Positions 1-30,351 of a stretch of 64,000 nucleotides of DNA are shown here, piece after piece. Source of the stretch: Cloeon dipterum. Its lineage: Eukaryota > Arthropoda > Insecta > Ephemeroptera > Baetidae. Positions within the stretch are counted from its first letter, which is position 1, and each line of letters begins with the position of its first letter. The DNA is taken from positions 27,638,335 through 27,702,334 of the forward strand of contig NC_088788.1 of assembly GCF_949628265.1 (NCBI RefSeq), read 5' to 3'. The translations under genes and the position numbers were made by a program. The notes below the pieces were generated by a model. That model was given only the letters and a program-made list of their open reading frames with translations, was not told the DNA's origin and made no database searches.

Positions 1-1042
1 AGTGAAATTATAACCCTTTTCAAAAATACCTTAGTTTGCACAAGCGAGATTTTTACGAAAAAATCTTTCTTTCAGGGCAGCTCTCATTTAAATGTTCTGA
101 AATAGTAGGTCTGTTCCTCTCGTTGCCTGCCCATTGTTAATATTACAGAAGCAACAATACATTAATAATTATACACCAGAGCGCGCAGAACTTTGTCTAG
201 AAGAAATTTGCATATTCCCTTTGAATCGCTCTCCCGCCCCATTTGCAACTGACATGCGGCACTCGATTTGCATTCGGCCTTGGACGCACGCCTTTTCCAG
301 ATGAGAGAATTAAAAATTCTGCAGCCTTCTCGTCTGCCTGTAATTTTATTATTTTGGTAATGAACCGCCAGAGCGAAAACACGGCGGCCACTGCCTCTCA
401 TAGGCTGTTTTATTTTTTCACTTCATTGTTATGCACCTCGAGAAAATGTTAATGTATGCGCTCGTTGGCCGCCGACACGCACGCTTGCGCCAAGGATCAC
501 TTGTGGGAATTGAATGTTATTAATTTTATTGTCTTGGAATAAAGCTCACCTTATCTGCCTTATAACCGCGAATTTTCGGAAGTGCATCGTAAAATGGAAA
601 TTTCAAATTCGCCACATAACCAGATAATTAGACACGTGCATGGTGTGCGGCTCTACTCAATAAATCGAATTGCTCAAAAAAAGACACTAACATTGCATTA
701 TTGGGTTTTCTTGCTCCTGCCATAGACCATGAATGTGTGTTATGTTATACAGCCAATCACATTTTAAAACATAATCATTATGCCAGCAGTTTTTAGCATT
801 TATTATTAAAACGCCAGGTCTTTTTTAAATATGATACCATTGAACAAAAATAAGATGAAACCAACTTTCAAAAATACTTAGTGCGATATTTATTTCGAAT
901 GGGCATGACAGAAAGAATGAAAAAATGCTATGAAAATTTTTCTGCGTTTTTGAAGTTTTCTGCTAGCATTTGTTTGCCCATTCTTACCATGTCTTAATTT
1001 TATGTATTTAAATTTTGTAACTATGACAGTAGGAATAAACAA
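1..1042. other. Gene-free left flank with possible retroposon tail
   Basis: I see no coding region with family resemblance here. It is AT-rich, with one GC-richer patch near 180-500. The last 80 bases (about 963-1042) read like the 3' tail of a retroposon: they end in AATAAACAAA and run straight into the (TAA)n tract. They loosely resemble two other tails in the window, near 12333-12410 and 36811-36882. That is inference from eye alignment. Confidence 0.4.
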
Positions 1043-1064
1043 ATAATAATAATAATAATAATAA
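1043..1064. repeat. (TAA)n microsatellite, target of retrotransposon insertion
   Basis: Seven and a third units of ATA/TAA precede the first Dong-like element. The same repeat reappears at the junction between the two elements (5145-5154) and after the second (9233-9245). This matches the known habit of the Bombyx Dong element of inserting in TAA repeats. Confidence 0.9.
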
Positions 1065-4000
1065 GATATTCTTGCTTGATTGTTGGAACTTGACTGTCGT
1101 CTTCTTGAGTGGCTCTTGCGAATTTGGCTTTTTCTATAGGAATCTGTAGTTTTTGGATCCCCCGCTTCCCCTTTTCTGAAAAGGTAGGAAATTCTTTTTC
1201 GTTTGAGCATAAGATCTCGCTCAGGGACCAATTTTATCATCAGATTTCCAGAATTAAAGTTTCTTTCAATTTGGCCATTATAGTTGTCGAATTCATTTCA
1301 ACAGTCAGTTAGCTTGTTTCTTTGTCGATAGCATTTTTGCGTTATTGTTGACAACAAACAAAGCGGTTGTAGCTCGAATTTTAGGCTAAATGCCCCGATT
1401 GAGAAAGAGAATTTCACCCATTGAGGGTGACTCACTGAATGATGGCACTAATTCAGTTGAGATTCAAGCGCCCGTGGTAAATAGTGGACCCTCGAACCAT
1501 CGGCGAGGGAGCGGCGCTGCACCACGTATGTCTACCGCTGCACCTTCAACATCTTCAGGTGCACCTGCGTCATCGGGTTTGGTGGAGCCTAGCGCACTAC
1601 TCACCCAGGCAGGGAGACCAAGACAACGCGTTAAATGGACTGATGAACTGAATGAGAACTTATTACGCGCATATTACAGAGCAACGAAGGTGGGAACTCA
1701 GGTGGAGGGCTTCCGTGTCAGGTTAGTGCAGGAATGGGAAAAAATCTATCCGTCTTCAATTCTTTCAGAGCAGAATGTTTGTGGCCAGTATAGGATTATT
1801 TGTTCTAGCAAAAGGGTTTCTGAAGACAGGGTTCATGAGTTGAGGGCTGAGATCCAGCAGGAATTGAATTTGACAGGTGCTGCCGAAATAGTTGAAAGAG
1901 TTTCACGAAGGAGAAGAGGAGAGTTAAATTTAGAAGCACAGGAAGAAACAAACGAGGCAAATGAAGAAGCAGGTTTGATGGGTCAAAACCAGCATGGAGA
2001 TGATGCAGAAGAAGAAGAAGAAGTGGTTGCTGGAGAAGAAAATCAGATAGATTTAAGACTTAATGTTGATTTTCAGAATTACAGGTCACGGTACGAGAAT
2101 GCAGTCATGAATGCTGTTCCGAGAATCCCAAAGATACCGTCAAACAGATCGGCTAATGAATGTGTTGCTAGAATGAATCGTATTTTGGATAGGGAACTAC
2201 ATGATGACTTAACTTTGGAAAGGCTTATAAATTTGGTCAAATGTGCAGCATTAGCAGTTTGTAGTGTGCTGGGTATTAGGGTGAATGAGGAGCCAACAGT
2301 GCCAAGGGAGGAAGCTGAAACAACGTCTATACCAAGATGGGTTAGGAAAATTGAGAAGAGAATCAATGGTTTTAGGAAAGACATTTCTCATGTCCAGGCC
2401 TTCTTGAGGTACAGGTTTTCTTCGGGAAGGAGGGTGATAAGAAATGTGAAAAGAATTCTGCTGACTATGCAGCTGTCTTTGAGTTCTCCAACAGCAAATA
2501 GGAGGTTGATGGGGAAGTGCGAATACTTGAAACAGAGAATTGCAGCTTTGGGGAGCAGAATACGTAGGTTCAACGAATCTTCGAAGAGAAGGAGAGAAGA
2601 GAAGATGTTTAGGGAAAATAGAAAGCAGTTTTTCAGGAAACTAGAGGGGCAAAAGCAGGTGGAAGGAGAAATGCCATCGAAGGAAAGTTTGCAGGAATTC
2701 TGGGCAGGAATTTGGTCGGATCCAAAAGAGCATGATGAAGGTTCTTCGTGGATAGGAGATGTGAAGGGGAAATGTGAAGATTTGACACAGATGGAGAAGG
2801 TCGTTATTGGAGTAGATGATGTGTCAAGAGTAATCAAGAAATCTCACAACTGGAAGGCGCCTGGGCATGACGGTGTGCAGAATTTTTGGTGGAAGAAATT
2901 TCCTGCAACTCACAGAATTCTTCAGAGTAGATTTTCAGATTTCATTGATGACCCTGACAGCATTCCTCAATTTCTGACTCTAGGCAACACTTTCATGCTT
3001 TACAAGAGTGGGGAGTCCAATCAGGCGAAAAACTATAGGCCCATAACATGTCTTCCAACTTTGTACAAGTTCTTCACTTCTATTATTGCAGCGAAAATAG
3101 AAGCTCATGTTAGTGCTCTCAACATTGTTGCTCCAGAGCAAAATGGTTGTAGGAAAGGGTCCCGAGGTTGCAAGGAGCTTTTGGTGGTAGACTCTGCAGT
3201 TGCTTCCCAGGTCAAAAAAGACAAAAAAGACTTTTCAACTTGTTGGATAGATTACAAAAAGGCTTTCGATTCTGTTCCTCATTCTTGGCTTGTTGAGGTT
3301 CTTCGACTATATAAGGTAGATGGCGCTGTTATTACCCTTTTACAGACTTGTATGCAGAGTTGGAGAACGCAACTGATTGTAGGAAGAGGACCAAATGCTA
3401 CAAGAACTGATGAGATCCAGATTCGACGAGGAATTTTTCAGGGGGATAGTCTTAGCCCTCTTTGGTTTATATTAGCGATGAATCCTCTGAGCATGCTGAT
3501 CAACGATCTGAAGTGCGGTTATAAAATGTCTGAAGTGCCAGCAGGTCTAATATCTCACCAGTTATATTTAGATGATTTGAAGCTCTACGCAGGCAACAAA
3601 AGGCAGCTGAAGAAAATGTTGGAAGTGGTAGAAAAGTTTAGTGACACGATCAAAATGGAATTTGGTTTAGAGAAGTGCGCTGCTGTTCATGTTAAGAAAG
3701 GGAAAGTGGTTGAAGGAGCAGAAGTTTTAGAGTTGCTGAATGGAGAGGTCATTGATTCTTTGGAAGAAGGGGGTAGCTACAAGTATTTGGGTATGCAGCA
3801 GCTTTTGCAGATCAATAGCAGTGATGTCAGAAAGTTGGTGGAGAAGAGGGTATTGGCTAGAGTTCGAAAGGTCTGCAAGACATATTTGTCAGGGAGGAGC
3901 AAGATCGCAGCGATTAATTCATGGGCGATTCCAGTTGCTGTGTACAGTTTTGGAGTCTTGAAATGGTCAAAGTCTTCATTGCAGGCATTAGATAGGAAGA

Positions 4001-5144
4001 TTCGAGTCACCTTAACCAAGTTTAGGCTTCATCATCCACGAAGTTCAATCCAGCGATTGTACATCCCGAGGAAAGAAGGAGGACGAGGTCTTCTATGTTT
4101 AGAGGTCATGTGTGCTAGGCAATGTGAACAGTTGAGGCACTATTTTGTGCAAAACAGGTCAGAGTTTGTCGAAGTGATTCAAGAAAAGAACTTGGCATTT
4201 GGTGCGCTTGATCTCGTCTCGGTGGATCCCGTTGAGTTTCCCCTGATGAGTTTGGAAGACAGGAAGCAGGAATGGCGAGGAAAGGAGTTGCATGGTCGTT
4301 TTCTTCGGGTGCTGGAATCTCAGAATGTAGACAAGGAATGGTCAACTGAGTGGCTTAGAACTTCGGGTATTTTTGGTGAGACTGAAGGTTTTATTCTTAG
4401 CATTCAAGATGAGGTGATTAGCACTCGAGGTTACCAGAGGCATGTCATGCGCCAGGATGTCTCTGATAGGTGTCGATTATGTAGGGTACAGAACGAATCG
4501 ATTCAACATGTTTGCGGAGGATGCAGTGTCCTGGCTCCCAGGGAGTATCTTGAGCGGCATAACAATGTCGCGAAGGTGGTGCATCAAGCGCTCGCTAAAA
4601 GCCTCAAATTACAGGAGGAAGAGCAGCCCTATTACAGATGCAAGCCACCGCAGGTCATGGAAGCTGGAGGAGTGCGTCTTCTTTGGGACTCGGAGATGGT
4701 GACTGACCGAGCAGTCGAGGCCAACAGACCGGACATCGTCGTCATTGACCAACGGAAGAAAGAAGGCCTGATCATCGACATCGCCGTGCCTTTGGATGCC
4801 AATGTGGAGAGAACCGTCGTCGAAAAAAAGAGAAAGTATCAGCCGCTTGCAGTGGAGTTGAAGGAAATCTACAACCTGGGGAAAATCAACGTGGTTCCTG
4901 TTGTCATTTCTACAAATGGAGTTGTGCTCAAAGACTGGAAGAAGCTGATGGAGACATTGCCGCTGACAACAAACCACCTCAAGCTGATGCAGAAAGCTGC
5001 AGTACTTGGAACTGCCAACATCGTCAGGAAGACTCTCGCACTTTAATTTCCACACTGTTTGTTTGCTCGCCATTTCCCGGCTTGGCCTCTTCTTGTAGGC
5101 CCGCCGGGTTATGTGTATCACTGTTGAACCAGAATAAATCCAAG
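1065..5144 (+). mobile_element. Dong/R4-clade non-LTR retrotransposon, copy 1 (full length)
   Basis: This is a full-length, non-LTR element: about 325 nt of 5' UTR, one 1218-codon ORF, about 98 nt of 3' UTR ending in AATAAATCCAAG, then TAA repeats in place of poly(A). It has no long terminal repeats. The 5' edge reads GATATTCTTGC, against GATTCTTGC in copy 2, so the copies differ by two bases exactly at the 5' junction. The single ORF with a C-terminal endonuclease, together with TAA target repeats, points to the R4/Dong clade. The 5' UTR has the palindrome TTGTTGACAACAA just upstream of the ORF. Start and end are certain to within a few bases because the flanking repeats are ambiguous. Confidence 0.92.
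1390..5046 (+). CDS. Retrotransposon polyprotein: Myb-like + reverse transcriptase + REL endonuclease (copy 1)
   Basis: This 1218-residue protein carries out target-primed reverse transcription of the element. The N-terminus is Ser/Pro/Ala-rich and is followed by a Myb-like DNA-binding region from about residue 80 (W83, later W115). An acidic Glu-rich stretch lies near 185-215. The reverse transcriptase occupies about 540-820: motif A has D621 in WIDYKKAFDS, the GIFQGDSLSP box is at 681-690, and the catalytic YLDD is at 726-729 (D728, D729). A zinc knuckle C1028-x2-C1031-x8-H1040-x4-C1045 precedes the restriction-enzyme-like endonuclease core RPD (1113-1115)...D1130 with a following Lys-rich helix. 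This order is that of R2/R4-type elements, and YLDDLKLY is like Dong/R4 relatives. There is no stop or frameshift, so the element could be active. The start codon is the first ATG of the long frame. Confidence 0.93.
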   Translation: MPRLRKRISPIEGDSLNDGTNSVEIQAPVVNSGPSNHRRGSGAAPRMSTAAPSTSSGAPASSGLVEPSALLTQAGRPRQRVKWTDELNENLLRAYYRATKVGTQVEGFRVRLVQEWEKIYPSSILSEQNVCGQYRIICSSKRVSEDRVHELRAEIQQELNLTGAAEIVERVSRRRRGELNLEAQEETNEANEEAGLMGQNQHGDDAEEEEEVVAGEENQIDLRLNVDFQNYRSRYENAVMNAVPRIPKIPSNRSANECVARMNRILDRELHDDLTLERLINLVKCAALAVCSVLGIRVNEEPTVPREEAETTSIPRWVRKIEKRINGFRKDISHVQAFLRYRFSSGRRVIRNVKRILLTMQLSLSSPTANRRLMGKCEYLKQRIAALGSRIRRFNESSKRRREEKMFRENRKQFFRKLEGQKQVEGEMPSKESLQEFWAGIWSDPKEHDEGSSWIGDVKGKCEDLTQMEKVVIGVDDVSRVIKKSHNWKAPGHDGVQNFWWKKFPATHRILQSRFSDFIDDPDSIPQFLTLGNTFMLYKSGESNQAKNYRPITCLPTLYKFFTSIIAAKIEAHVSALNIVAPEQNGCRKGSRGCKELLVVDSAVASQVKKDKKDFSTCWIDYKKAFDSVPHSWLVEVLRLYKVDGAVITLLQTCMQSWRTQLIVGRGPNATRTDEIQIRRGIFQGDSLSPLWFILAMNPLSMLINDLKCGYKMSEVPAGLISHQLYLDDLKLYAGNKRQLKKMLEVVEKFSDTIKMEFGLEKCAAVHVKKGKVVEGAEVLELLNGEVIDSLEEGGSYKYLGMQQLLQINSSDVRKLVEKRVLARVRKVCKTYLSGRSKIAAINSWAIPVAVYSFGVLKWSKSSLQALDRKIRVTLTKFRLHHPRSSIQRLYIPRKEGGRGLLCLEVMCARQCEQLRHYFVQNRSEFVEVIQEKNLAFGALDLVSVDPVEFPLMSLEDRKQEWRGKELHGRFLRVLESQNVDKEWSTEWLRTSGIFGETEGFILSIQDEVISTRGYQRHVMRQDVSDRCRLCRVQNESIQHVCGGCSVLAPREYLERHNNVAKVVHQALAKSLKLQEEEQPYYRCKPPQVMEAGGVRLLWDSEMVTDRAVEANRPDIVVIDQRKKEGLIIDIAVPLDANVERTVVEKKRKYQPLAVELKEIYNLGKINVVPVVISTNGVVLKDWKKLMETLPLTTNHLKLMQKAAVLGTANIVRKTLAL

Positions 5145-5154
5145 ATAATAATAA
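5145..5154. repeat. (TAA)n junction between tandem elements
   Basis: The ten bases ATAATAATAA separate the 3' end of copy 1 (ending CCAAG) from the first base shared by copy 2 (GATTCTTGC). No host sequence other than TAA units is present. This is expected if copy 2 landed in the TAA tail of copy 1, or copy 1 upstream of copy 2 in one TAA tract. Confidence 0.85.
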
Positions 5155-8100
5155 GATTCTTGCTTGATTGTTGGAACTTGACTGTCGTCTTCTTGAGTGG
5201 CTCTTGCGAATTTGGCTTTTTCTATAGGAATCTGTAGTTTTTGGATCCCCCGCTTCCCCTTTTCTGAAAAGGTAGGAAATTCTTTTTCGTTTGAGCATAA
5301 GATCTCGCTCAGGGACCAATTTTATCATCAGATTTCCAGAATTAAAGTTTCTTTCAATTTGGCCATTATAGTTGTCGAATTCATTTCAACAGTCAGTTAG
5401 CTTGTTTCTTTGTCGATAGCATTTTTGCGTTATTGTTGACAACAAACAAAGCGGTTGTAGCTCGAATTTTAGGCTAAATGCCCCGATTGAGAAAGAGAAT
5501 TTCACCCATTGAGGGTGACTCACTGAATGATGGCACTAATTCAGTTGAGATTCAAGCGCCCGTGGTAAATAGTGGACCCTCGAACCATCGGCGAGGGAGC
5601 GGCGCTGCACCACGTATGTCTACCGCTGCACCTTCAACATCTTCAGGTGCACCTGCGTCATCGGGTTTGGTGGAGCCTAGCGCACTACTCACCCAGGCAG
5701 GGAGACCAAGACAACGCGTTAAATGGACTGATGAACTGAATGAGAACTTATTACGCGCATATTACAGAGCAACGAAGGTGGGAACTCAGGTGGAGGGCTT
5801 CCGTGTCAGGTTGTTGCAGGAATGGGAAAAAATCTATCCGTCTTCAATTCTTTCAGAGCAGAATGTTTGTGGCCAGTATAGGATTATTTGTTCTAGCAAA
5901 AGGGTTTCTGAAGACAGGGTTCATGAGTTGAGGGCTGAGATCCAGCAGGAATTGAATTTGACAGGTGCTGCCGAAATAGTTGAAAGAGTTTCACGAAGGA
6001 GAAGAGGAGAGTTAAATTTAGAAGCACAGGAAGAAACAAACGAGGCAAATGAAGAAGCAGGTTTGATGGGTCAAAACCAGCATGGAGATGATGCAGAAGA
6101 AGAAGAAGAAGTGGTTGCTGGAGAAGAAAATCAGATAGATTTAAGACTTAATGTTGATTTTCAGAATTACAGGTCACGGTACGAGAATGCAGTCATGAAT
6201 GCTGTTCCGAGAATCCCAAAGATACCGTCAAACAGATCGGCTAATGAATGTGTTGCTAGAATGAATCGTATTTTGGATAGGGAACTACATGATGACTTAA
6301 CTTTGGAAAGGCTTATAAATTTGGTCAAATGTGCAGCATTAGCAGTTTGTAGTGTGCTGGGTATTAGGGTGAATGAGGAGCCAACAGTGCCAAGGGAGGA
6401 AGCTGAAACAACGTCTATACCAAGATGGGTTAGGAAAATTGAGAAGAGAATCAATGGTTTTAGGAAAGACATTTCTCATGTCCAGGCCTTCTTGAGGTAC
6501 AGGTTTTCTTCGGGAAGGAGGGTGATAAGAAATGTGAAAAGAATTCTGCTGACTATGCAGCTGTCTTTGAGTTCTCCAACAGCAAATAGGAGGTTGATGG
6601 GGAAGTGCGAATACTTGAAACAGAGAATTGCAGCTTTGGGGAGCAGAATACGTAGGTTCAACGAATCTTCGAAGAGAAGGAGAGAAGAGAAGATGTTTAG
6701 GGAAAATAGAAAGCAGTTTTTCAGGAAACTAGAGGGGCAAAAGCAGGTGGAAGGAGAAATGCCATCGAAGGAAAGTTTGCAGGAATTCTGGGCAGGAATT
6801 TGGTCGGATCCAAAAGAGCATGATGAAGGTTCTTCGTGGATAGGAGATGTGAAGGGGAAATGTGAAGATTTGACACAGATGGAGAAGGTCGTTATTGGAG
6901 TAGATGATGTGTCAAGAGTAATCAAGAAATCTCACAACTGGAAGGCGCCTGGGCATGACGGTGTGCAGAATTTTTGGTGGAAGAAATTTCCTGCAACTCA
7001 CAGAATTCTTCAGAGTAGATTTTCAGATTTCATTGATGACCCTGACAGCATTCCTCAATTTCTGACTCTAGGCAACACTTTCATGCTTTACAAGAGTGGG
7101 GAGTCCAATCAGGCGAAAAACTATAGGCCCATAACATGTCTTCCAACTTTGTACAAGTTCTTCACTTCTATTATTGCAGCGAAAATAGAAGCTCATGTTA
7201 GTGCTCTCAACATTGTTGCTCCAGAGCAAAATGGTTGTAGGAAAGGGTCCCGAGGTTGCAAGGAGCTTTTGGTGGTAGACTCTGCAGTTGCTTCCCAGGT
7301 CAAAAAAGACAAAAAAGACTTTTCAACTTGTTGGATAGATTACAAAAAGGCTTTCGATTCTGTTCCTCATTCTTGGCTTGTTGAGGTTCTTCGACTATAT
7401 AAGGTAGATGGCGCTGTTATTACCCTTTTACAGACTTGTATGCAGAGTTGGAGAACGCAACTGATTGTAGGAAGAGGACCAAATGCTACAAGAACTGATG
7501 AGATCCAGATTCGACGAGGAATTTTTCAGGGGGATAGTCTTAGCCCTCTTTGGTTTATATTAGCGATGAATCCTCTGAGCATGCTGATCAACGATCTGAA
7601 GTGCGGTTATAAAATGTCTGAAGTGCCAGCAGGTCTAATATCTCACCAGTTATATTTAGATGATTTGAAGCTCTACGCAGGCAACAAAAGGCAGCTGAAG
7701 AAAATGTTGGAAGTGGTAGAAAAGTTTAGTGACACGATCAAAATGGAATTTGGTTTAGAGAAGTGCGCTGCTGTTCATGTTAAGAAAGGGAAAGTGGTTG
7801 AAGGAGCAGAAGTTTTAGAGTTGCTGAATGGAGAGGTCATTGATTCTTTGGAAGAAGGGGGTAGCTACAAGTATTTGGGTATGCAGCAGCTTTTGCAGAT
7901 CAATAGCAGTGATGTCAGAAAGTTGGTGGAGAAGAGGGTATTGGCTAGAGTTCGAAAGGTCTGCAAGACATATTTGTCAGGGAGGAGCAAGATCGCAGCG
8001 ATTAATTCATGGGCGATTCCAGTTGCTGTGTACAGTTTTGGAGTCTTGAAATGGTCAAAGTCTTCATTGCAGGCATTAGATAGGAAGATTCGAGTCACCT

Positions 8101-9232
8101 TAACCAAGTTTAGGCTTCATCATCCACGAAGTTCAATCCAGCGATTGTACATCCCGAGGAAAGAAGGAGGACGAGGTCTTCTATGTTTAGAGGTCATGTG
8201 TGCTAGGCAATGTGAACAGTTGAGGCACTATTTTGTGCAAAACAGGTCAGAGTTTGTCGAAGTGATTCAAGAAAAGAACTTGGCATTTGGTGCGCTTGAT
8301 CTCGTCTCGGTGGATCCCGTTGAGTTTCCCCTGATGAGTTTGGAAGACAGGAAGCAGGAATGGCGAGGAAAGGAGTTGCATGGTCGTTTTCTTCGGGTGC
8401 TGGAATCTCAGAATGTAGACAAGGAATGGTCAACTGAGTGGCTTAGAACTTCGGGTATTTTTGGTGAGACTGAAGGTTTTATTCTTAGCATTCAAGATGA
8501 GGTGATTAGCACTCGAGGTTACCAGAGGCATGTCATGCGCCAGGATGTCTCTGATAGGTGTCGATTATGTAGGGTACAGAACGAATCGATTCAACATGTT
8601 TGCGGAGGATGCAGTGTCCTGGCTCCCAGGGAGTATCTTGAGCGGCATAACAATGTCGCGAAGGTGGTGCATCAAGCGCTCGCTAAAAGCCTCAAATTAC
8701 AGGAGGAAGAGCAGCCCTATTACAGATGCAAGCCACCGCAGGTCATGGAAGCTGGAGGAGTGCGTCTTCTTTGGGACTCGGAGATGGTGACTGACCGAGC
8801 AGTCGAGGCCAACAGACCGGACATCGTCGTCATTGACCAACGGAAGAAAGAAGGCCTGATCATCGACATCGCCGTGCCTTTGGATGCCAATGTGGAGAGA
8901 ACCGTCGTCGAAAAAAAGAGAAAGTATCAGCCGCTTGCAGTGGAGTTGAAGGAAATCTACAACCTGGGGAAAATCAACGTGGTTCCTGTTGTCATTTCTA
9001 CAAATGGAGTTGTGCTCAAAGACTGGAAGAAGCTGATGGAGACATTGCCGCTGACAACAAACCACCTCAAGCTGATGCAGAAAGCTGCAGTACTTGGAAC
9101 TGCCAACATCGTCAGGAAGACTCTCGCACTTTAATTTCCACACTGTTTGTTTGCTCGCCATTTCCCGGCTTGGCCTCTTCTTGTAGGCCCGCCGGGTTAT
9201 GTGTATCACTGTTGAACCAGAATAAATCCAAG
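5155..9232 (+). mobile_element. Dong/R4-clade non-LTR retrotransposon, copy 2 (full length)
   Basis: This is a second full-length element in the same orientation, offset by exactly 4088 bases from copy 1. The 5' UTR, ORF and 3' UTR appear the same by eye. I noticed one dinucleotide difference in the ORF (AG at 1725-1726 against GT here) and a 2-nt difference at the 5' edge. I did not compare every base. The near identity implies very recent duplication or insertion, or an assembly duplication. Confidence 0.92.
5478..9134 (+). CDS. Retrotransposon polyprotein: Myb-like + reverse transcriptase + REL endonuclease (copy 2)
   Basis: This 1218-residue protein is identical to that of copy 1 except residue 113, Val in copy 1 and Leu here (GTG to TTG, next to a silent TTA to TTG change at codon 112). 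The site lies in the Myb-like region, not in a catalytic motif. All motifs are retained: D621, D728-D729, the C1028/C1031/H1040/C1045 knuckle and the RPD...D endonuclease core. Having two intact copies, not one intact and one decayed, argues that the family is young. No promoter is evident beyond the 5' UTR itself. Confidence 0.93.
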   Translation: MPRLRKRISPIEGDSLNDGTNSVEIQAPVVNSGPSNHRRGSGAAPRMSTAAPSTSSGAPASSGLVEPSALLTQAGRPRQRVKWTDELNENLLRAYYRATKVGTQVEGFRVRLLQEWEKIYPSSILSEQNVCGQYRIICSSKRVSEDRVHELRAEIQQELNLTGAAEIVERVSRRRRGELNLEAQEETNEANEEAGLMGQNQHGDDAEEEEEVVAGEENQIDLRLNVDFQNYRSRYENAVMNAVPRIPKIPSNRSANECVARMNRILDRELHDDLTLERLINLVKCAALAVCSVLGIRVNEEPTVPREEAETTSIPRWVRKIEKRINGFRKDISHVQAFLRYRFSSGRRVIRNVKRILLTMQLSLSSPTANRRLMGKCEYLKQRIAALGSRIRRFNESSKRRREEKMFRENRKQFFRKLEGQKQVEGEMPSKESLQEFWAGIWSDPKEHDEGSSWIGDVKGKCEDLTQMEKVVIGVDDVSRVIKKSHNWKAPGHDGVQNFWWKKFPATHRILQSRFSDFIDDPDSIPQFLTLGNTFMLYKSGESNQAKNYRPITCLPTLYKFFTSIIAAKIEAHVSALNIVAPEQNGCRKGSRGCKELLVVDSAVASQVKKDKKDFSTCWIDYKKAFDSVPHSWLVEVLRLYKVDGAVITLLQTCMQSWRTQLIVGRGPNATRTDEIQIRRGIFQGDSLSPLWFILAMNPLSMLINDLKCGYKMSEVPAGLISHQLYLDDLKLYAGNKRQLKKMLEVVEKFSDTIKMEFGLEKCAAVHVKKGKVVEGAEVLELLNGEVIDSLEEGGSYKYLGMQQLLQINSSDVRKLVEKRVLARVRKVCKTYLSGRSKIAAINSWAIPVAVYSFGVLKWSKSSLQALDRKIRVTLTKFRLHHPRSSIQRLYIPRKEGGRGLLCLEVMCARQCEQLRHYFVQNRSEFVEVIQEKNLAFGALDLVSVDPVEFPLMSLEDRKQEWRGKELHGRFLRVLESQNVDKEWSTEWLRTSGIFGETEGFILSIQDEVISTRGYQRHVMRQDVSDRCRLCRVQNESIQHVCGGCSVLAPREYLERHNNVAKVVHQALAKSLKLQEEEQPYYRCKPPQVMEAGGVRLLWDSEMVTDRAVEANRPDIVVIDQRKKEGLIIDIAVPLDANVERTVVEKKRKYQPLAVELKEIYNLGKINVVPVVISTNGVVLKDWKKLMETLPLTTNHLKLMQKAAVLGTANIVRKTLAL

Positions 9233-9245
9233 ATAATAATAATAA
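9233..9245. repeat. (TAA)n tail of copy 2
   Basis: Thirteen bases ATAATAATAATAA follow the CCAAG 3' end of copy 2 and pass into AT-rich host DNA. They are the counterpart of the 22-bp tract upstream of copy 1. Confidence 0.85.
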
Positions 9246-10342
9246 AATTTAAATTATGGTAGGGTAAGGTCATTGTGTAAAAGATAATTTAACTCTTGTC
9301 TTGTTTTTTTTCTAATTCACGTCCTGCATAATTTTTGTTGAACATTGCAACGGTATATGTTAATATTTAAAATTGCTTTCTTAGAGACATCGTTAGCAAA
9401 CAAAAATATTTCATACCACTTATATCCATAATCTGGTCATCAAGTCAAGAACCCCATGAGACAATTAAGCGCGCCTAATGAGGATCGGCAGTGTTTCACT
9501 TGCGGCGTGTGCCGTAAGCAAATAATCATTAGGAAAGAGAGCGGGCCAAGCTTAAATAAACACACGAGTTCACGTACCATATAATATCAGATCGGTTGCG
9601 GTGGCGTGTGCGGTATCTCGCAGGGGTCGAGTCCATAATTCCGCAGACCAAGGTGGGTCGTTTAATTTTTCTTTTGCGCTCTCTTTATTTTTGCCGCGGC
9701 CACCATTCTGTTCGAGATTAGTTCTGCTGTTTTCTGCTGCTGCTGTTGAACGATCGCATTTTTCATTCTTTGCGGGTCGCGTCGCGCGAATAAATCACCT
9801 CGCAGTGTCAGCAGCGCTTGTCATAAATTCACGCGGCTTAACTTTTGCACACGAATTACGTGCGAAAAACCGTGTGTAGCTACAACGGTGATAACTTTCA
9901 CGTTAAAATATTCATAAATACCTGAAGCAGTATAATTTTGTTCATTTCAAGTGCACTTTTAAAATGCAAATCTGAAATTTTTTAGGAATATTTTATTGCG
10001 AGATAACGACAAATCCGGGAAATTGCGAATGAGCTAGTTAACGGTTCCAGGTAGTCCAAAGAAAATTTCTTAACTGAATATCGGGTAACTTTTCCCCAAT
10101 TTTTGTCATTGGATAAATAACAAAAATTAAATTCATTCCAATTTTATAAATTCAATAAACCCAAATTTTAACTTAAATTTCTTTTGGAAATATAAAAGTG
10201 CAGGAACATTTTTTTATCAACATGCATCAAATTTAGGAAATTTTTACAGATTTCAAACGCTGTGCAAATTTCAAAGCTTAGTACAAACCCACTTTGAAAA
10301 TGTTTCAGTTAAAAAAGCCTAGTTATAGCATGCAGATTTGTC
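9246..10342. other. Gene-free region with GC-richer block
   Basis: I see no gene. A GC-richer block spans about 9590-9870, flanked by AT-rich DNA. A short inverted pair CCTAATGA (9474-9481) and TCATTAGG (9526-9533) contains TAAT homeodomain cores. Open frames in the block look incidental: no conserved motif and no consistent splice signals. Confidence 0.4.
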
Positions 10343-14550: not shown

Positions 14551-24134
<9,584 letters not shown>

Positions 24135-27100
24135 TCAATTTTTTGTGTATGAATTTAAAATCAAATCCACAGCTTTCTCAGCAATCATATAAACAGGTGC
24201 CATAGTGTTGCCACTGACAATATCTGGCATGATAGAAGCGTCAACCACCCTTAGTCCTTTCACTCCGTGCACCCTGAGCTCAGCGTCCACCACAGCCAAC
24301 GCGTCCTCGGCAGGCCCCATTTTGCAGGTGCCAGCGGGGTGGTAGGTGGTGGCAGCAGTGTGTCTGACGGCACATTTCCAGTAGGTGAAAGATAGCGAAG
24401 GAAACTGGCTACAACCCGGTAGCTTCGCAGTGTTCAACCTGGCACCCTGGGTTCTCAAAGGTTTGGCCTGGCTCATTGCCAAACTCCATATAGCACCTCT
24501 TGCCAGGGTTTCCACATCCTCTTCATGTTCGAAGAAATTGGCAAATATTTTTGGTGCCGCTGTAGGGTTGGAAGACTGAAGTTGAATCCAGCCTCTGCTC
24601 TTAGGACGCAAGAGGATTGGCTCCATGATGTAAACGTCGCGATTTTCTTTAAATAATGGTCTAGAACAAACAAGTGAAAAATTATTAAAATTTAAATATA
24701 ATTTTTTCGTAAGTGTAACAACTATACCTGAAAAGCGTTTCTTTTGACTCTTGTGTCAGTCCATAGATTTTCGAACCCACGTCTACATTTCTTGCGTCAC
24801 TAAAAGGTCCTTCAAAATGCATCTGAACGTCTGGGTAATTTCTAGATTTAAAATTTGTGCTGATGAAACCTGTCAGGCTCAAAGCGCCGGTCGTCGACAG
24901 TCGTCCTGAGCGACTTTGAAAATATTGGAAAACTGGATCCACTGAATTGTTTTCTTTTGGAACACTAAATGTTGCTCCCATGAACCTCGAGTGATCTTGC
25001 AAGTTGCGGCCTACGCCAGGCAGGTCGTGAACTACACTGATGTTCAGGTCATTCAGGTGGTCTGCAGGTCCAACGCCGGAGAGCATCAAAAGTTGCGGAG
25101 AATTGATCGCACCAGCAGATAAAATCACTTCCTGTCGCGCTCTCAGAGTCCGCACTTGTCCATTTCTCACGAATTCCACGCCGACGGCTCTTGTTCCCTC
25201 AAATATCACTTTGGTCGCTTGAGCATGTTTGAAGACGTGCAGATTCTCCCTGGCTTTGGCGCCCTTCAAAAATGCCTTGGCTGCGTTGAATCTGACGCTA
25301 TGGGAGGCGGTTACCTGCGCCTTGTTGAAGCCGGCCTGCTGCGCGCCGTTCACGTCGGTTAATCTCGATCCAGTCTGAACGGCCGACTGGAGCATAGCCT
25401 GAAATATAGCAGCATAAGAGAAACTTTTTTATCAGCCCATTAATTCCGTTGGGCCTCACTTGAAATATCGGCGGCCATTCTTCAAAGTTCGACACAGGGA
25501 GCGGTCCACCGCTTGCGTGGTACGTCGAATTCTGCAAGCCGGCTACCTTTATGTCCTCGGAGCGCTTGAAGTAGGGCAAGACGGAGGCGTAGTCCCAGCC
25601 AGGGTTGCCTTTAGCGACCCAGTTGTCGTAATCGTTTTTATGGCCGCGAACGTAAATCATCGCGTTCAGAACCGTCGAGCCCCCGAGTGCCTTCCCCCGT
25701 GGCCAAAGGCATCTGCGAAAATAAAAAGGGTAGTATAAAAATGCCGAATAGCGTTTCGTCATTGCGCTGTTATTACCTGTTTCCCTCCAGCCCTTGGAAT
25801 GCGTTTGTTTGTGGCTCGGTTTTGTATTGCCAATCAGCATCTGTCATCTGGAATTCCGCAACTTCTATTAAGGTTCTTATATTACAACAAACATCAAGCT
25901 AGAAGTAGATAAATAGAAAGAAGCAGTAATTTTTGTGGTAATAAAATTTCTTTGGTGTCTTACAGTCAGGATTAAGGCATATAGCAAGGTATTTATGTTT
26001 TTATGAATTAACAGAATGATTATATTTGCCAGATTTCATTTCAAGAAAAGATTAGTTTGAAATTATTCCATTGAAGAAAATATTGTTAAAATTATTTTTA
26101 AAAAAATGACATGAATATATAAGTATCTAAAATATTCAAAGCTAACATAATATTTTTTTAAATTAAATAAAACGTAGAGCTATTAAGTAACGGTGAAAGT
26201 AAGCTAGCAGTAACTGCCGCTACCTTGAATAGCACTTGTTAAAATCCGAGTAATTGACAAGGTGGTAGGTGTGAAAGAGGATTATGATGTAGAGCTATAA
26301 TTGCGGCGGAGCCCAGCAGTGCTCTAGACGAGTTCACTCATGTTCGACGCCCTGGGGTTAAGCACGGTGAATTAATTGTCTGGCGATTGGAATCTTTGTA
26401 AACGCGCTTAATTACTTCGTGTCATGTCAGTGGGGGCAACAAAGTTGCGTGACCCGGCCGCCCGGCACACTGCGGTGAAATTCGGCGGTGCCGGGCCCAC
26501 CTGCATCGGTTTGTTCGTACACACGCCCTGTTATTATGCAGCCACCACCAATCTCTTTCTCATCATTGATTCCAACTCTCATCCTGTTGTGGCGGCGCTC
26601 AAGGGCGCTCAAGCCTACGCCCTCGAGGCTTGACACGCACTTAAATGAGCACACAATCAATTTATCGCCTGTCGTTCTCTTCCGCCCCGCAGTTCCTCAT
26701 TTGTACAACACCGAATTCTTTTGCGTGCGATTGGAAAATTCTCTGCCGATCGATATTCATGACAACTCTCAAATTAGAATTTTTACTATAAATTATACAA
26801 GCACACTGATAGCGAATTTTTTATAGGAGATAATTTGGAATCTACGGAAGTCTTAAAGTTCAGTGAAAAATCAGTGTTTTCGTTTAAATACATCTCTATA
26901 AATTATTGTTGTCTAATTTAGTTTGAATATAGCATTATAAATACACCCCACGATTTATGTATTTTTTAAGAAATGCTTCTAAGAGAAAATTTGTCTCTTA
27001 AACTTATACCTCTTGAGCCATTTTTGTGTGTACTCTCGCAAAGTTAAATTTTTCTATCCATTAAAAACTTGAGAAAAAAATTAAAGTTTTACCTGCAAAG

Positions 27101-29165: not shown

Positions 29166-29551
29166 TTCGCTAATTTCAATGATATAACAAATATAAGCAC
29201 AAATAAGAAAAAAAGTCATTGAAAACTTTTTGCGTTTAATTTCAGCCTCCATAAAGTTCGGAAATTTATCTCCGTTTATTGATCGCTTTCTTTTATTTAA
29301 CAAAAACTGAAAATCTGAATAATTTTTATTTGAAAAATATGTTTGACTCTTCTCTTCCCATTTCCCATCCAAATTTCACTTTACTCATGGAGACTGGAAA
29401 CTGGAAAGCTGCTGGAAAGATAAGGATTATAGCATTGCTATTGACACGTGTCTTTACCGCCTCATGGAGCACCAGCCCATTTAAAATCCCCTGTTTGCGG
29501 TTAAAAATATTTGGTGGCAGCACAATCGAATATCCTGTCTCCGGTAGCAAG
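29166..29551 (+). other. Presumed 5' UTR and promoter of ATPsynF
   Basis: No coding exon fits. The sequence becomes GC-richer towards the ATPsynF start at 29552. The ATG there follows AGCAAG, giving a purine (A) at -3 and G at +4, a good initiation context. Confidence 0.35.
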
Positions 29552-30351
29552 ATGGCGTTCGGTGACTACCCGGCCGAATATAATCCAAAGGTTCACGGGC
29601 CCTACGACCCTGCCCGTTATTATGGCAAAAGTAAGTTATCTTGAATTTGTTCCTTATATATTTTCCTTCAAAATGAGCCCTGTATCTTCAAAATCGGTTG
29701 TGCACTTCTGTTGCAAAATCAATTTTCTTGATCAGGGATTTTTTTACTGGCTTACATAGCAACTTATCTTTTCAAATCAATATTGCTGTCATATTTGCGT
29801 GTATGAGCCGATTTTAACTACTTCTAATAATTTCAGTCGACACCCCTTTCACTCAAGTGAAGGTCGGTGAGATTGGAGGTTGGCTAGCCCGCAGGAATAA
29901 GTCTCCAAATGCCATCGCTGGAGCTTTCAGCCGAGGTATGTTTTCTTTGTTCCTGCCTAATGGATGGATAAATTACACTTTTCGCCGCGACTTATTCAGT
30001 TTTTGCCACCCACAATCCTAAATAAGAATCTCATAAGAACTGGAGAGATGTGTAACCCGGTGGAAACTGTAACTTTTCCATATTATGTGAAATTAAATTT
30101 TCGGTTTTTTATTTTGATAACATTATTTTTAACAATGTTTTCAGCTTTCTGGCGCTGGCAACATAAGTACGTGCAGCCAAAGAGGACCGGAATTGCTCCT
30201 TTCTTCCAGGTCACCTTCGCTGGAATGCTTTTCTTCTACGTGATGAACTACGGAAAACTGAGTAAGCCATTTTACTATAAGATTTTTCCATCAGTTTCTT
30301 AATTTATCCTAAATTGCAGAGCACCACCGCAACTACAAGTACCACTGGTGA
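29552..30351 (+). CDS. ATPsynF: ATP synthase subunit f, mitochondrial
   Basis: Four exons: 29552-29630, 29837-29935, 30145-30261, 30320-30351, all GT-AG, giving 108 residues. The protein is a small single-pass subunit of the membrane Fo part of mitochondrial F1Fo-ATP synthase, involved in dimer and peripheral stalk assembly. The N-terminal MAFGDYPAEYNPKVHGPYDP, the middle SRAFWRWQHKYVQPKRTGIA and the C-terminal KHHRNYKYHW match the insect orthologue almost residue for residue. The single hydrophobic segment (about FFQVTFAGMLFFYVMNY) is the transmembrane helix. Intron phases are 1, 1 and 1. An AATAAA poly(A) signal lies at 30446-30451. The gene converges on the tRNase Z gene, whose stop codon is only 176 bp away. 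Confidence 0.97.

What the first reader, a model, noticed from the sequence alone, without database searches (positions are those of the whole stretch)
1043..9245. Two intact Dong/R4-clade retrotransposons in direct tandem
Both copies are full length, in the same orientation, joined only by TAA repeats, and each has an uninterrupted 1218-codon ORF with all catalytic motifs. Non-LTR elements are usually 5'-truncated and decayed, so two intact tandem copies suggest a currently active family with strong TAA target preference. It could also reflect read-through of a tandem template or unequal exchange.
Basis: partly seen in the sequence, partly recalled or inferred. Interest (0 to 1): 0.75.

Follow-up and report, generated by a model that had tools for sequence, protein, structure and literature searches.

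The report
Self-chaining TAA-targeted retrotransposon and its partner
Two nearly identical, intact copies of a jumping gene sit head to tail because this family inserts into TAA repeats and also ends in TAA repeats, and elsewhere in the same genome it forms similar chains with a shorter element that seems to hitch-hike on it.

Summary
In detail: two direct 4,077-nt copies (spacing 4,088) differ at two adjacent bases, each with a 1,218-codon ORF bearing RT, CCHC and PD..D endonuclease motifs. The genome holds two more intact copies, identical to window copy 2. Of 21 LINE and 15 partner copies examined, all lie in sense (TAA)n. Not in the finding: a ~930-nt non-autonomous element shares only the last 75 nt, a stem-loop with one compensated pair. 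The two form same-strand chains: 14 junctions among 61 listed insertions, against 1.6 expected if all (TAA)4+ tracts are equal targets, 7.2 for (TAA)5+. In 4 of 5 fetched partner pairs the members are not each other's closest copies, and the window copies have different 5' junctions, so duplication is unlikely. Most likely an R4/Dong-like LINE inserts serially by target-primed reverse transcription into TAA tracts, its own tails included; template jumping is a live rival. The clade label rests on features, not a tree. Recent movement is well supported; transcription is untested.

The parts
1042..1064 (+). (TAA)n target tract left of copy 1
1065..5144 (+). copy 1 of the TAA-targeted LINE (variable GAT at 1065-1067, conserved core from 1068)
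1390..5046 (+). 1218-aa ORF of copy 1
3025..3795 (+). reverse transcriptase domain (PF00078, E 1.3e-27), active-site motif YLDD
   Evidence: the region matches solved R2 proteins
4471..4524 (+). CCHC motif (CX2C..HX4C), aa 1028-1045
   Evidence: aligned with R2 in a weak second stretch (i-Evalue 0.031)
4726..4785 (+). RPD..D restriction-like endonuclease motif, from aa 1113
   Evidence: same weak stretch
5076..5108 (+). 3' UTR stem-loop shared with the partner element
5145..5155 (+). junction: TAA tail of copy 1 plus one extra G before copy 2
5156..9232 (+). copy 2 core, identical over 4077 nt to copies L045 and L046
5478..9134 (+). 1218-aa ORF of copy 2
9164..9196 (+). 3' UTR stem-loop of copy 2
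   Evidence: same letters as copy 1 at offset 4088
9233..9245 (+). TAA tail of copy 2

Best explanation
This is a recently active LINE of the restriction-like-endonuclease group, R4/Dong-like. Its protein nicks sense-strand (TAA)n and copies its own RNA there by target-primed reverse transcription, recognising a 3' UTR stem-loop followed by a (TAA)n tail. Each insertion leaves a new (TAA)n tract at its 3' end, oriented so that a later insertion there must lie head to tail. The window pair is most likely two successive insertions of nearly identical RNAs, the later one into a TAA tract of the earlier. A ~930-nt non-autonomous element with the same 3' stem-loop uses the same machinery and joins the chains. 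Shown: target, tail, orientation, chains, partner and recent identity. Inferred: endonuclease and RT activity, recognition of the stem-loop, mobilisation of the partner, and the order of events.
For: 5' flank in sense (TAA)2 or longer for 21 of 21 LINE copies (two of them segmental duplicates of one insertion) and 15 of 15 partner copies examined; antisense tracts of 3+ units in 0. Four open 1218-aa frames. Window copy 2, L045 and L046 are 100% identical over 4077 nt. 14 adjacent same-strand junctions among 61 listed insertions, 24 of the 61 in arrays; simulated expectation 1.6 (maximum 6 in 4000 runs) for targets of 4+ units. 5' junctions vary between copies, including the two in the window. 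Partner pairs in L047 (94.8%) and L056 (94.2%) join different subfamilies; both L066 members are closer to L055, and both L067 members closer to L036, than to each other, though only by about 0.1-0.2%. Ages seem to differ inside two arrays: L058 has 0 of 293 versus 4 of 263 mismatches to window copy 2 (P about 0.012), and in L052 a LINE copy with 0 mismatches in 679 nt abuts a relative with two in-frame TGA. Stem-loop: 96.9% of cells paired, one pair changed on both sides in 8 of 18 sequences.
Against: If only (TAA)5+ tracts count as targets, 7.2 junctions are expected (95% limit 11), so the excess is modest. Array-internal tracts (mean 4.2 units, n 13) are shorter than the tracts in front of leading or solitary copies (mean 4.9, n 22, P 0.049; mean 5.3, n 19, P 0.003 if three diverged copies are left out, a choice made after seeing the data), which simple preference for long TAA tracts would not predict. 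The L065 pair is identical with identical junctions, as duplication or template jumping would give. In the stem-loop test the number of compensated pairs (1) and of pair types (5) did not exceed shuffles (373 and 500 of 500 reached them). The 2-nt difference between the window 5' junctions could be a later mutation. No expression data.
Confidence: 0.58

Rival explanations
1. Template jumping: in one integration event the reverse transcriptase reaches the 5' end of one RNA and continues on the TAA tail of a second RNA, producing a head-to-tail chain at once.
For: Gives the same orientation and TAA joints. [quoted passage not shown] In vivo R2 template jumps are described in PMC3414825 (abstract and one section). 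Internal TAA tracts resemble tail length rather than target length. L065 members are identical.
Against: Members of L058 and L052 seem to have different ages. Strongly truncated LINE copies lie downstream of full-length partners in L052 and L055. Different partner subfamilies would have to be co-expressed.
Confidence: 0.28
2. Unequal exchange or replication slippage between flanking TAA tracts duplicated a single insertion.
For: TAA tracts flank the copies. L065a and L065b are identical with identical 5' junctions. Segmental duplication of one copy does occur on C2 (L049 and L050 share flanks).
Against: The window copies have different 5' junctions (GAT versus G), and copy 2, not copy 1, matches copies elsewhere exactly. 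In 4 of 5 fetched pairs of full-length partners the two are not each other's closest copies, in two of the four only by about 0.1-0.2%. Heterotypic LINE-partner joints cannot arise this way from one copy.
Confidence: 0.07
3. Assembly duplication of a single copy.
For: The copies are 99.95% identical; no reads were available.
Against: Distinct bases and junctions in the two copies; 13 further junctions of the same kind elsewhere.
Confidence: 0.04
4. The number of arrays needs no special cause: serial insertion happens, but the elements' own tails are simply a fair share of the long TAA tracts available.
For: Only about 496 tracts of 5+ units exist genome-wide, giving 7.2 expected junctions; in the simulation the 95% limit is 11 and the maximum of 4000 runs is 16.
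Against: Tails and internal tracts are mostly 3-4 units; tracts of 4+ number about 2,248 (1.6 junctions expected) and of 3+ about 16,837.
Confidence: 0.25

Closest known systems
Dong (Bombyx mori) and R4/Dong-clade LINEs
   Same: RT plus restriction-like endonuclease, insertion in (TAA)n, no N-terminal zinc finger (clade description from PMC7998251, passages and section 3.3).
   Different: No sequence comparison or tree was possible. Dong carries an HDV-like self-cleaving ribozyme at its 5' end (PMC3774820, passages); none was detected here. Chains with a non-autonomous partner were not in the passages I saw.
R2 SIDEs (short internally deleted elements)
   Same: Non-autonomous element carried by a restriction-like-endonuclease LINE through a shared 3' end; variable 5' junctions (PMC3414825, abstract).
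   Different: R2 SIDEs keep the R2 5' ribozyme. Here the partner shares only the last 75 nt; nothing else in it matches the LINE significantly.
Utopia-1_NVit in U2 genes
   Same: Restriction-like-endonuclease LINE 'occasionally inserted in tandem' in its target (PMC4640811, insertion-site section).
   Different: Target is U2 snRNA genes, not a repeat that the element itself ends in.
Zepp LINE clusters of Coccomyxa
   Same: Clusters of nested copies of one LINE (PMC3446292, passages).
   Different: [quoted passage not shown] here the arrays are short (2-4 members) and lie at 10 places.
LINE/SINE pairs sharing a 3' tail
   Same: A short element with the 3' tail of its partner LINE (general rule stated in the abstract of PMC7245038 as listed).
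   Different: No tRNA head found (ARAGORN on L056 only) and no Rfam match (L056 and L047); at ~930 nt it is longer than a typical SINE (recalled).

Membership tests
R4/Dong clade | Single ORF with RT and C-terminal CCHC plus PD..D restriction-like endonuclease | tested here: met
   C-terminal match to R2 weak (second stretch)
R4/Dong clade | Insertion in (TAA)n or rDNA | tested here: met
   21 of 21 examined five-prime flanks in sense (TAA)n
R4/Dong clade | No N-terminal zinc finger; divergent SANT/Myb-like domain | tested here: inconclusive
   No zinc-finger pattern before aa 1028, which fits. The SANT/Myb part is unconfirmed: no Pfam hit in aa 1-270; single-sequence fold poor, mean pLDDT 52.
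R4/Dong clade | HDV-like ribozyme at the 5' end (shown for R4 and Dong, PMC3774820) | tested here: inconclusive
   No Rfam match to such a ribozyme at E up to 5 in 1000-9400. Own descriptor found none, but it had no positive control. The 5' end does not fold better than shuffles (z 0.89).
R4/Dong clade | RT phylogeny with Dong, R4, Rex6 | not testable with these tools
   No reference sequence reachable; no relatives found in viral contigs or genome contigs
R2 clade | Insertion in 28S rDNA | tested here: not met
   The copies examined are in (TAA)n, although R2 proteins are the best matches among solved structures
HERO clade (some members microsatellite-specific, PMC4640811) | RT phylogeny | not testable with these tools
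   No reference sequence reachable; not excluded
SIDE/SINE-like partner (the ~930-nt element) | 3' end shared with the mobilising LINE | tested here: met
   75 aligned columns at 87-91% identity with a shared stem-loop
SIDE (internal deletion of the LINE) | 5' end derived from the same LINE | tested here: not met
   No other significant similarity to the LINE in DNA or translation (two partner copies tested)

The most novel reading that the evidence does not exclude
A LINE and its non-autonomous partner that build mixed head-to-tail chains by a dedicated route, either concatenating different RNAs by template jumping during one integration or being guided by element 3' ends as well as by TAA. 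The target microsatellite would then be manufactured and multiplied by the elements themselves.
Probability: 0.3. Interest if true: 0.65.

Novelty: new variant of a known kind. Interest (0 to 1): 0.48.

Why it matters
It is a natural system in which a site-specific LINE supplies its own target, with near-identical intact copies, a partner element sharing the presumed recognition stem-loop, and ten array loci whose junctions could separate serial insertion from template jumping. R2 enzymes, the nearest solved relatives, are being used for RNA-templated gene insertion, where template jumping and head-to-tail products have been seen (PMC11371274, passages).

Tried and rejected
Unequal exchange was considered and judged unlikely (different 5' junctions; neighbours mostly not closest relatives). 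An HDV-like ribozyme was sought by Rfam in the window and in L056 and L047, and by a home-made descriptor at both 5' ends; none was found, but the descriptor, written from recalled general architecture, had no positive control and also found nothing in 100 shuffles of each, so this is weak. The LINE's 5' end does not fold better than shuffles (z 0.89), nor clearly does the partner's (z -1.33). A tRNA head for the partner was sought in L056: none. Origin of the partner from this LINE by internal deletion was rejected. The N-terminal fold was too poor to use. Relatives for a tree were sought in viral contigs and genome contigs: none confirmed. Papers on R4/Dong tandem arrays or a non-autonomous R4/Dong partner: the answered searches showed none that I recognised. 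Several lists were cut (20 of 192, 10 of 16, 15 of 727, 10 of 17, 8 of 6,054), and mostly only titles and abstract starts were seen.

Rows dropped before the count (entered by hand). Of 42 hits, 23 were entered as LINE-type insertions, 15 are partner tails, and 4 short or diverged hits were left out. Of 52 hits, 36 rows were entered (as 35 insertions) and 16 were left out (2 are LINE tails, 14 lack the 3' end or are fragments). Two partner tails (L031, L034) were added, and the 5' part in L050. The 61 entries include 2 diverged relatives and one segmental duplicate (the simulation used 60). An extra 16-nt tail remnant in L049/L050 was not counted as a junction. state that counts of repeats are lower bounds. 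One search used 35 of the 36 rows (the segmental duplicate left out).
Full report
Observation. The window holds two direct copies with cores at 1068-5144 and 5156-9232, offset 4088, differing at two adjacent bases (1725-1726 AG, 5813-5814 GT). Each has a 1218-aa ORF. They are joined by ATAATAATAA plus one G, and TAA tracts lie on both outer sides. The genome in which the window lies (190.1 Mb, 10 contigs, unnamed) can be searched; the window is on its contig C3.

The element. Pfam finds only RVT_1 (aa 546-802, E 1.3e-27). Among solved structures there are six matches, led by R2 retrotransposon proteins; the best one has a second, weak stretch (i-Evalue 0.031) over the C-terminal CCHC and PD..D region. 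The CCHC motif is at aa 1028-1045 and RPD at 1113; no zinc-finger pattern precedes aa 1028; the RT active site reads YLDD. The N-terminal 270 aa have no Pfam match and a single-sequence fold was poor. So the SANT/Myb-like domain reported for R4/Dong elements (PMC7998251, section 3.3) could not be confirmed here. No R4, Dong or Rex6 sequence was reachable for a tree, so the R4/Dong label is by features only, and HERO, which has some microsatellite-specific members (PMC4640811, passages), is not excluded.

Copies. One search lists 25 matches to the ORF. Five are full length: the two in the window, L045 and L046 (both 100% identical to window copy 2 over 4077 nt) and L047 (99.2%). Four have an open 1218-aa frame; L047 is broken (two matched pieces with stops). 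The AG at 1725-1726 is private to copy 1 among six copies that span the site. Identity of three copies at separate places implies very recent movement. Transcription was not tested.

Target. For 21 LINE copies whose ends I could read (two are segmental duplicates of one insertion), all 21 have sense (TAA)2 or longer at the 5' junction, 19 of 21 have it 3', and none has an antisense tract of 3 or more units; for 15 partner copies it is 15 of 15 on both sides. The five full-length copies and the L050 5' part start at the same base with variable extra bases (GAT, G, GG, TGGG, G, G), as in 5' junctions of target-primed reverse transcription (general knowledge; compare PMC3414825).

A partner element. 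Searching the genome with the LINE's last 256 nt gave 42 hits, of which 15 match only the last ~87 nt. Most of these are tails of a ~930-nt element. A search with one copy gave 52 matches; 25 of the 37 partner insertions I listed are full length, against 5 of 24 LINE-type entries. The partner shares only 75 aligned columns at the 3' end with the LINE (87-91% identity; no other significant DNA or protein similarity, two copies tested). It has no tRNA head in L056 and no Rfam match in L056 or L047. One of its short reading frames has no Pfam match. The shared end folds into a stem-loop (z -2.6). On 18 aligned ends 96.9% of pair cells are standard, and one pair changes on both sides in 8 of 18 sequences, as LINE-type GC versus partner-type AU. 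The percentage paired and the covariation score exceed all 500 shuffles, but the number of compensated pairs (1) and of pair types (5) do not; five of the 11 pairs never vary. So the support is real but rests on few evolutionary events.

Chains. Entering 24 LINE-type and 37 partner insertions, I find 14 junctions with neighbours no more than 11 bases apart, all on the same strand, at 10 loci; 24 of 61 insertions are in arrays and 8 of the 10 loci include a partner. Examples: L047 is LINE-partner-partner; L056 is truncated LINE-partner-partner; L052 is partner-partner-truncated LINE-diverged relative; L058 is two truncated LINEs. Pattern counts, both strands together, were 19,791 for (TAA)3, 2,954 for (TAA)4, 706 for (TAA)5 and 210 for (TAA)6. 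Differences of successive counts give about 16,837 tracts of 3 or more units, 2,248 of 4 or more and 496 of 5 or more, in TAA phase only (the reversed control pattern, the AAT phase, gives higher counts, so the target pool is if anything larger). A simulation with equal choice among tracts gives 1.6 junctions (maximum 6 in 4000 runs) for 4+ and 7.2 (95% limit 11, maximum 16) for 5+. The excess is strong under the first null and modest under the second.

How the chains arise. Duplication is unlikely: the window copies have different 5' junctions (though a later 2-nt change could mimic this), and copy 2 matches copies elsewhere better than it matches copy 1. Of five fetched pairs of full-length partners, L047 and L056 join different subfamilies (94-95%), L066 and L067 members are each closer to a copy elsewhere (by only about 0.1-0.2%), and L065 is an identical pair. 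Serial insertion is best suggested by unequal ages: in L058 one member has 0 of 293 and the other 4 of 263 mismatches to window copy 2 (P about 0.012, assuming equal rates and one source), and in L052 a LINE copy with no mismatch in 679 nt abuts a relative with two in-frame TGA. Against a purely length-driven serial model, array-internal TAA tracts (mean 4.2 units, n 13) are shorter than those before leading or solitary copies (mean 4.9, n 22; P 0.049; mean 5.3, n 19 and P 0.003 if three diverged copies are left out after the fact). This favours template jumping, or guidance by element ends, for some arrays. Template jumping by R2 enzymes is documented (PMC3414825, abstract and one section; PMC11371274, passages). 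For the window pair itself the two routes cannot be told apart.

Comparison with what is known. TAA-inserting Dong elements, R2 SIDEs, tandem Utopia insertions and Zepp clusters each show one side of this. In the eight answered literature searches, several with cut lists, I saw no report of a non-autonomous partner of an R4/Dong-like element or of mixed TAA-joined chains; subscription papers are mostly not held. I therefore rate it a new variant of a known kind.

Verdict. The finding is real and its reading largely right, but the two copies are one case of a family-wide habit. Serial target-primed insertion into self-made TAA tracts is the best single account (0.58); template jumping (0.28) is the main rival. 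The confidences overlap, since mixtures are possible and the 'fair share of tracts' account (0.25) is a quantitative version of serial insertion.

Noticed in passing
L056:1754-3618, L047:5184-7062, L065, L066, L067 (genome C1, C4, C2): A ~930-nt non-autonomous element with the LINE's 3' stem-loop, often in tandem; older internal fragments at 75-89% identity elsewhere suggest a long history.
   Followed up: yes
L068 (G000 C5:1371900-1375300, minus strand): A distant restriction-like-endonuclease LINE (24% identity, active site FADD, CCHC and PD..D motifs) next to a stretch that reads N; looks R2-like.
   Followed up: partly
L049 and L050 (G000 C2:36121439 and C2:36579810): The same truncated insertion with identical flanks at two places about 458 kb apart: a segmental duplication. 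Each tail is followed by a further 16-nt remnant of the LINE 3' end.
   Followed up: partly
window 24135-25843, minus strand: GMC oxidoreductase gene: one piece matches PF05199 (E 4e-39); two neighbouring open frames look alike by eye and were not tested.
   Followed up: no
window 29547-30280, plus strand: Two Rfam 'Sphinx' conserved regions above gathering score; from memory these mark an ATP synthase subunit gene in insects.
   Followed up: no
window 18217-18330: (AG)57 microsatellite.
   Followed up: no
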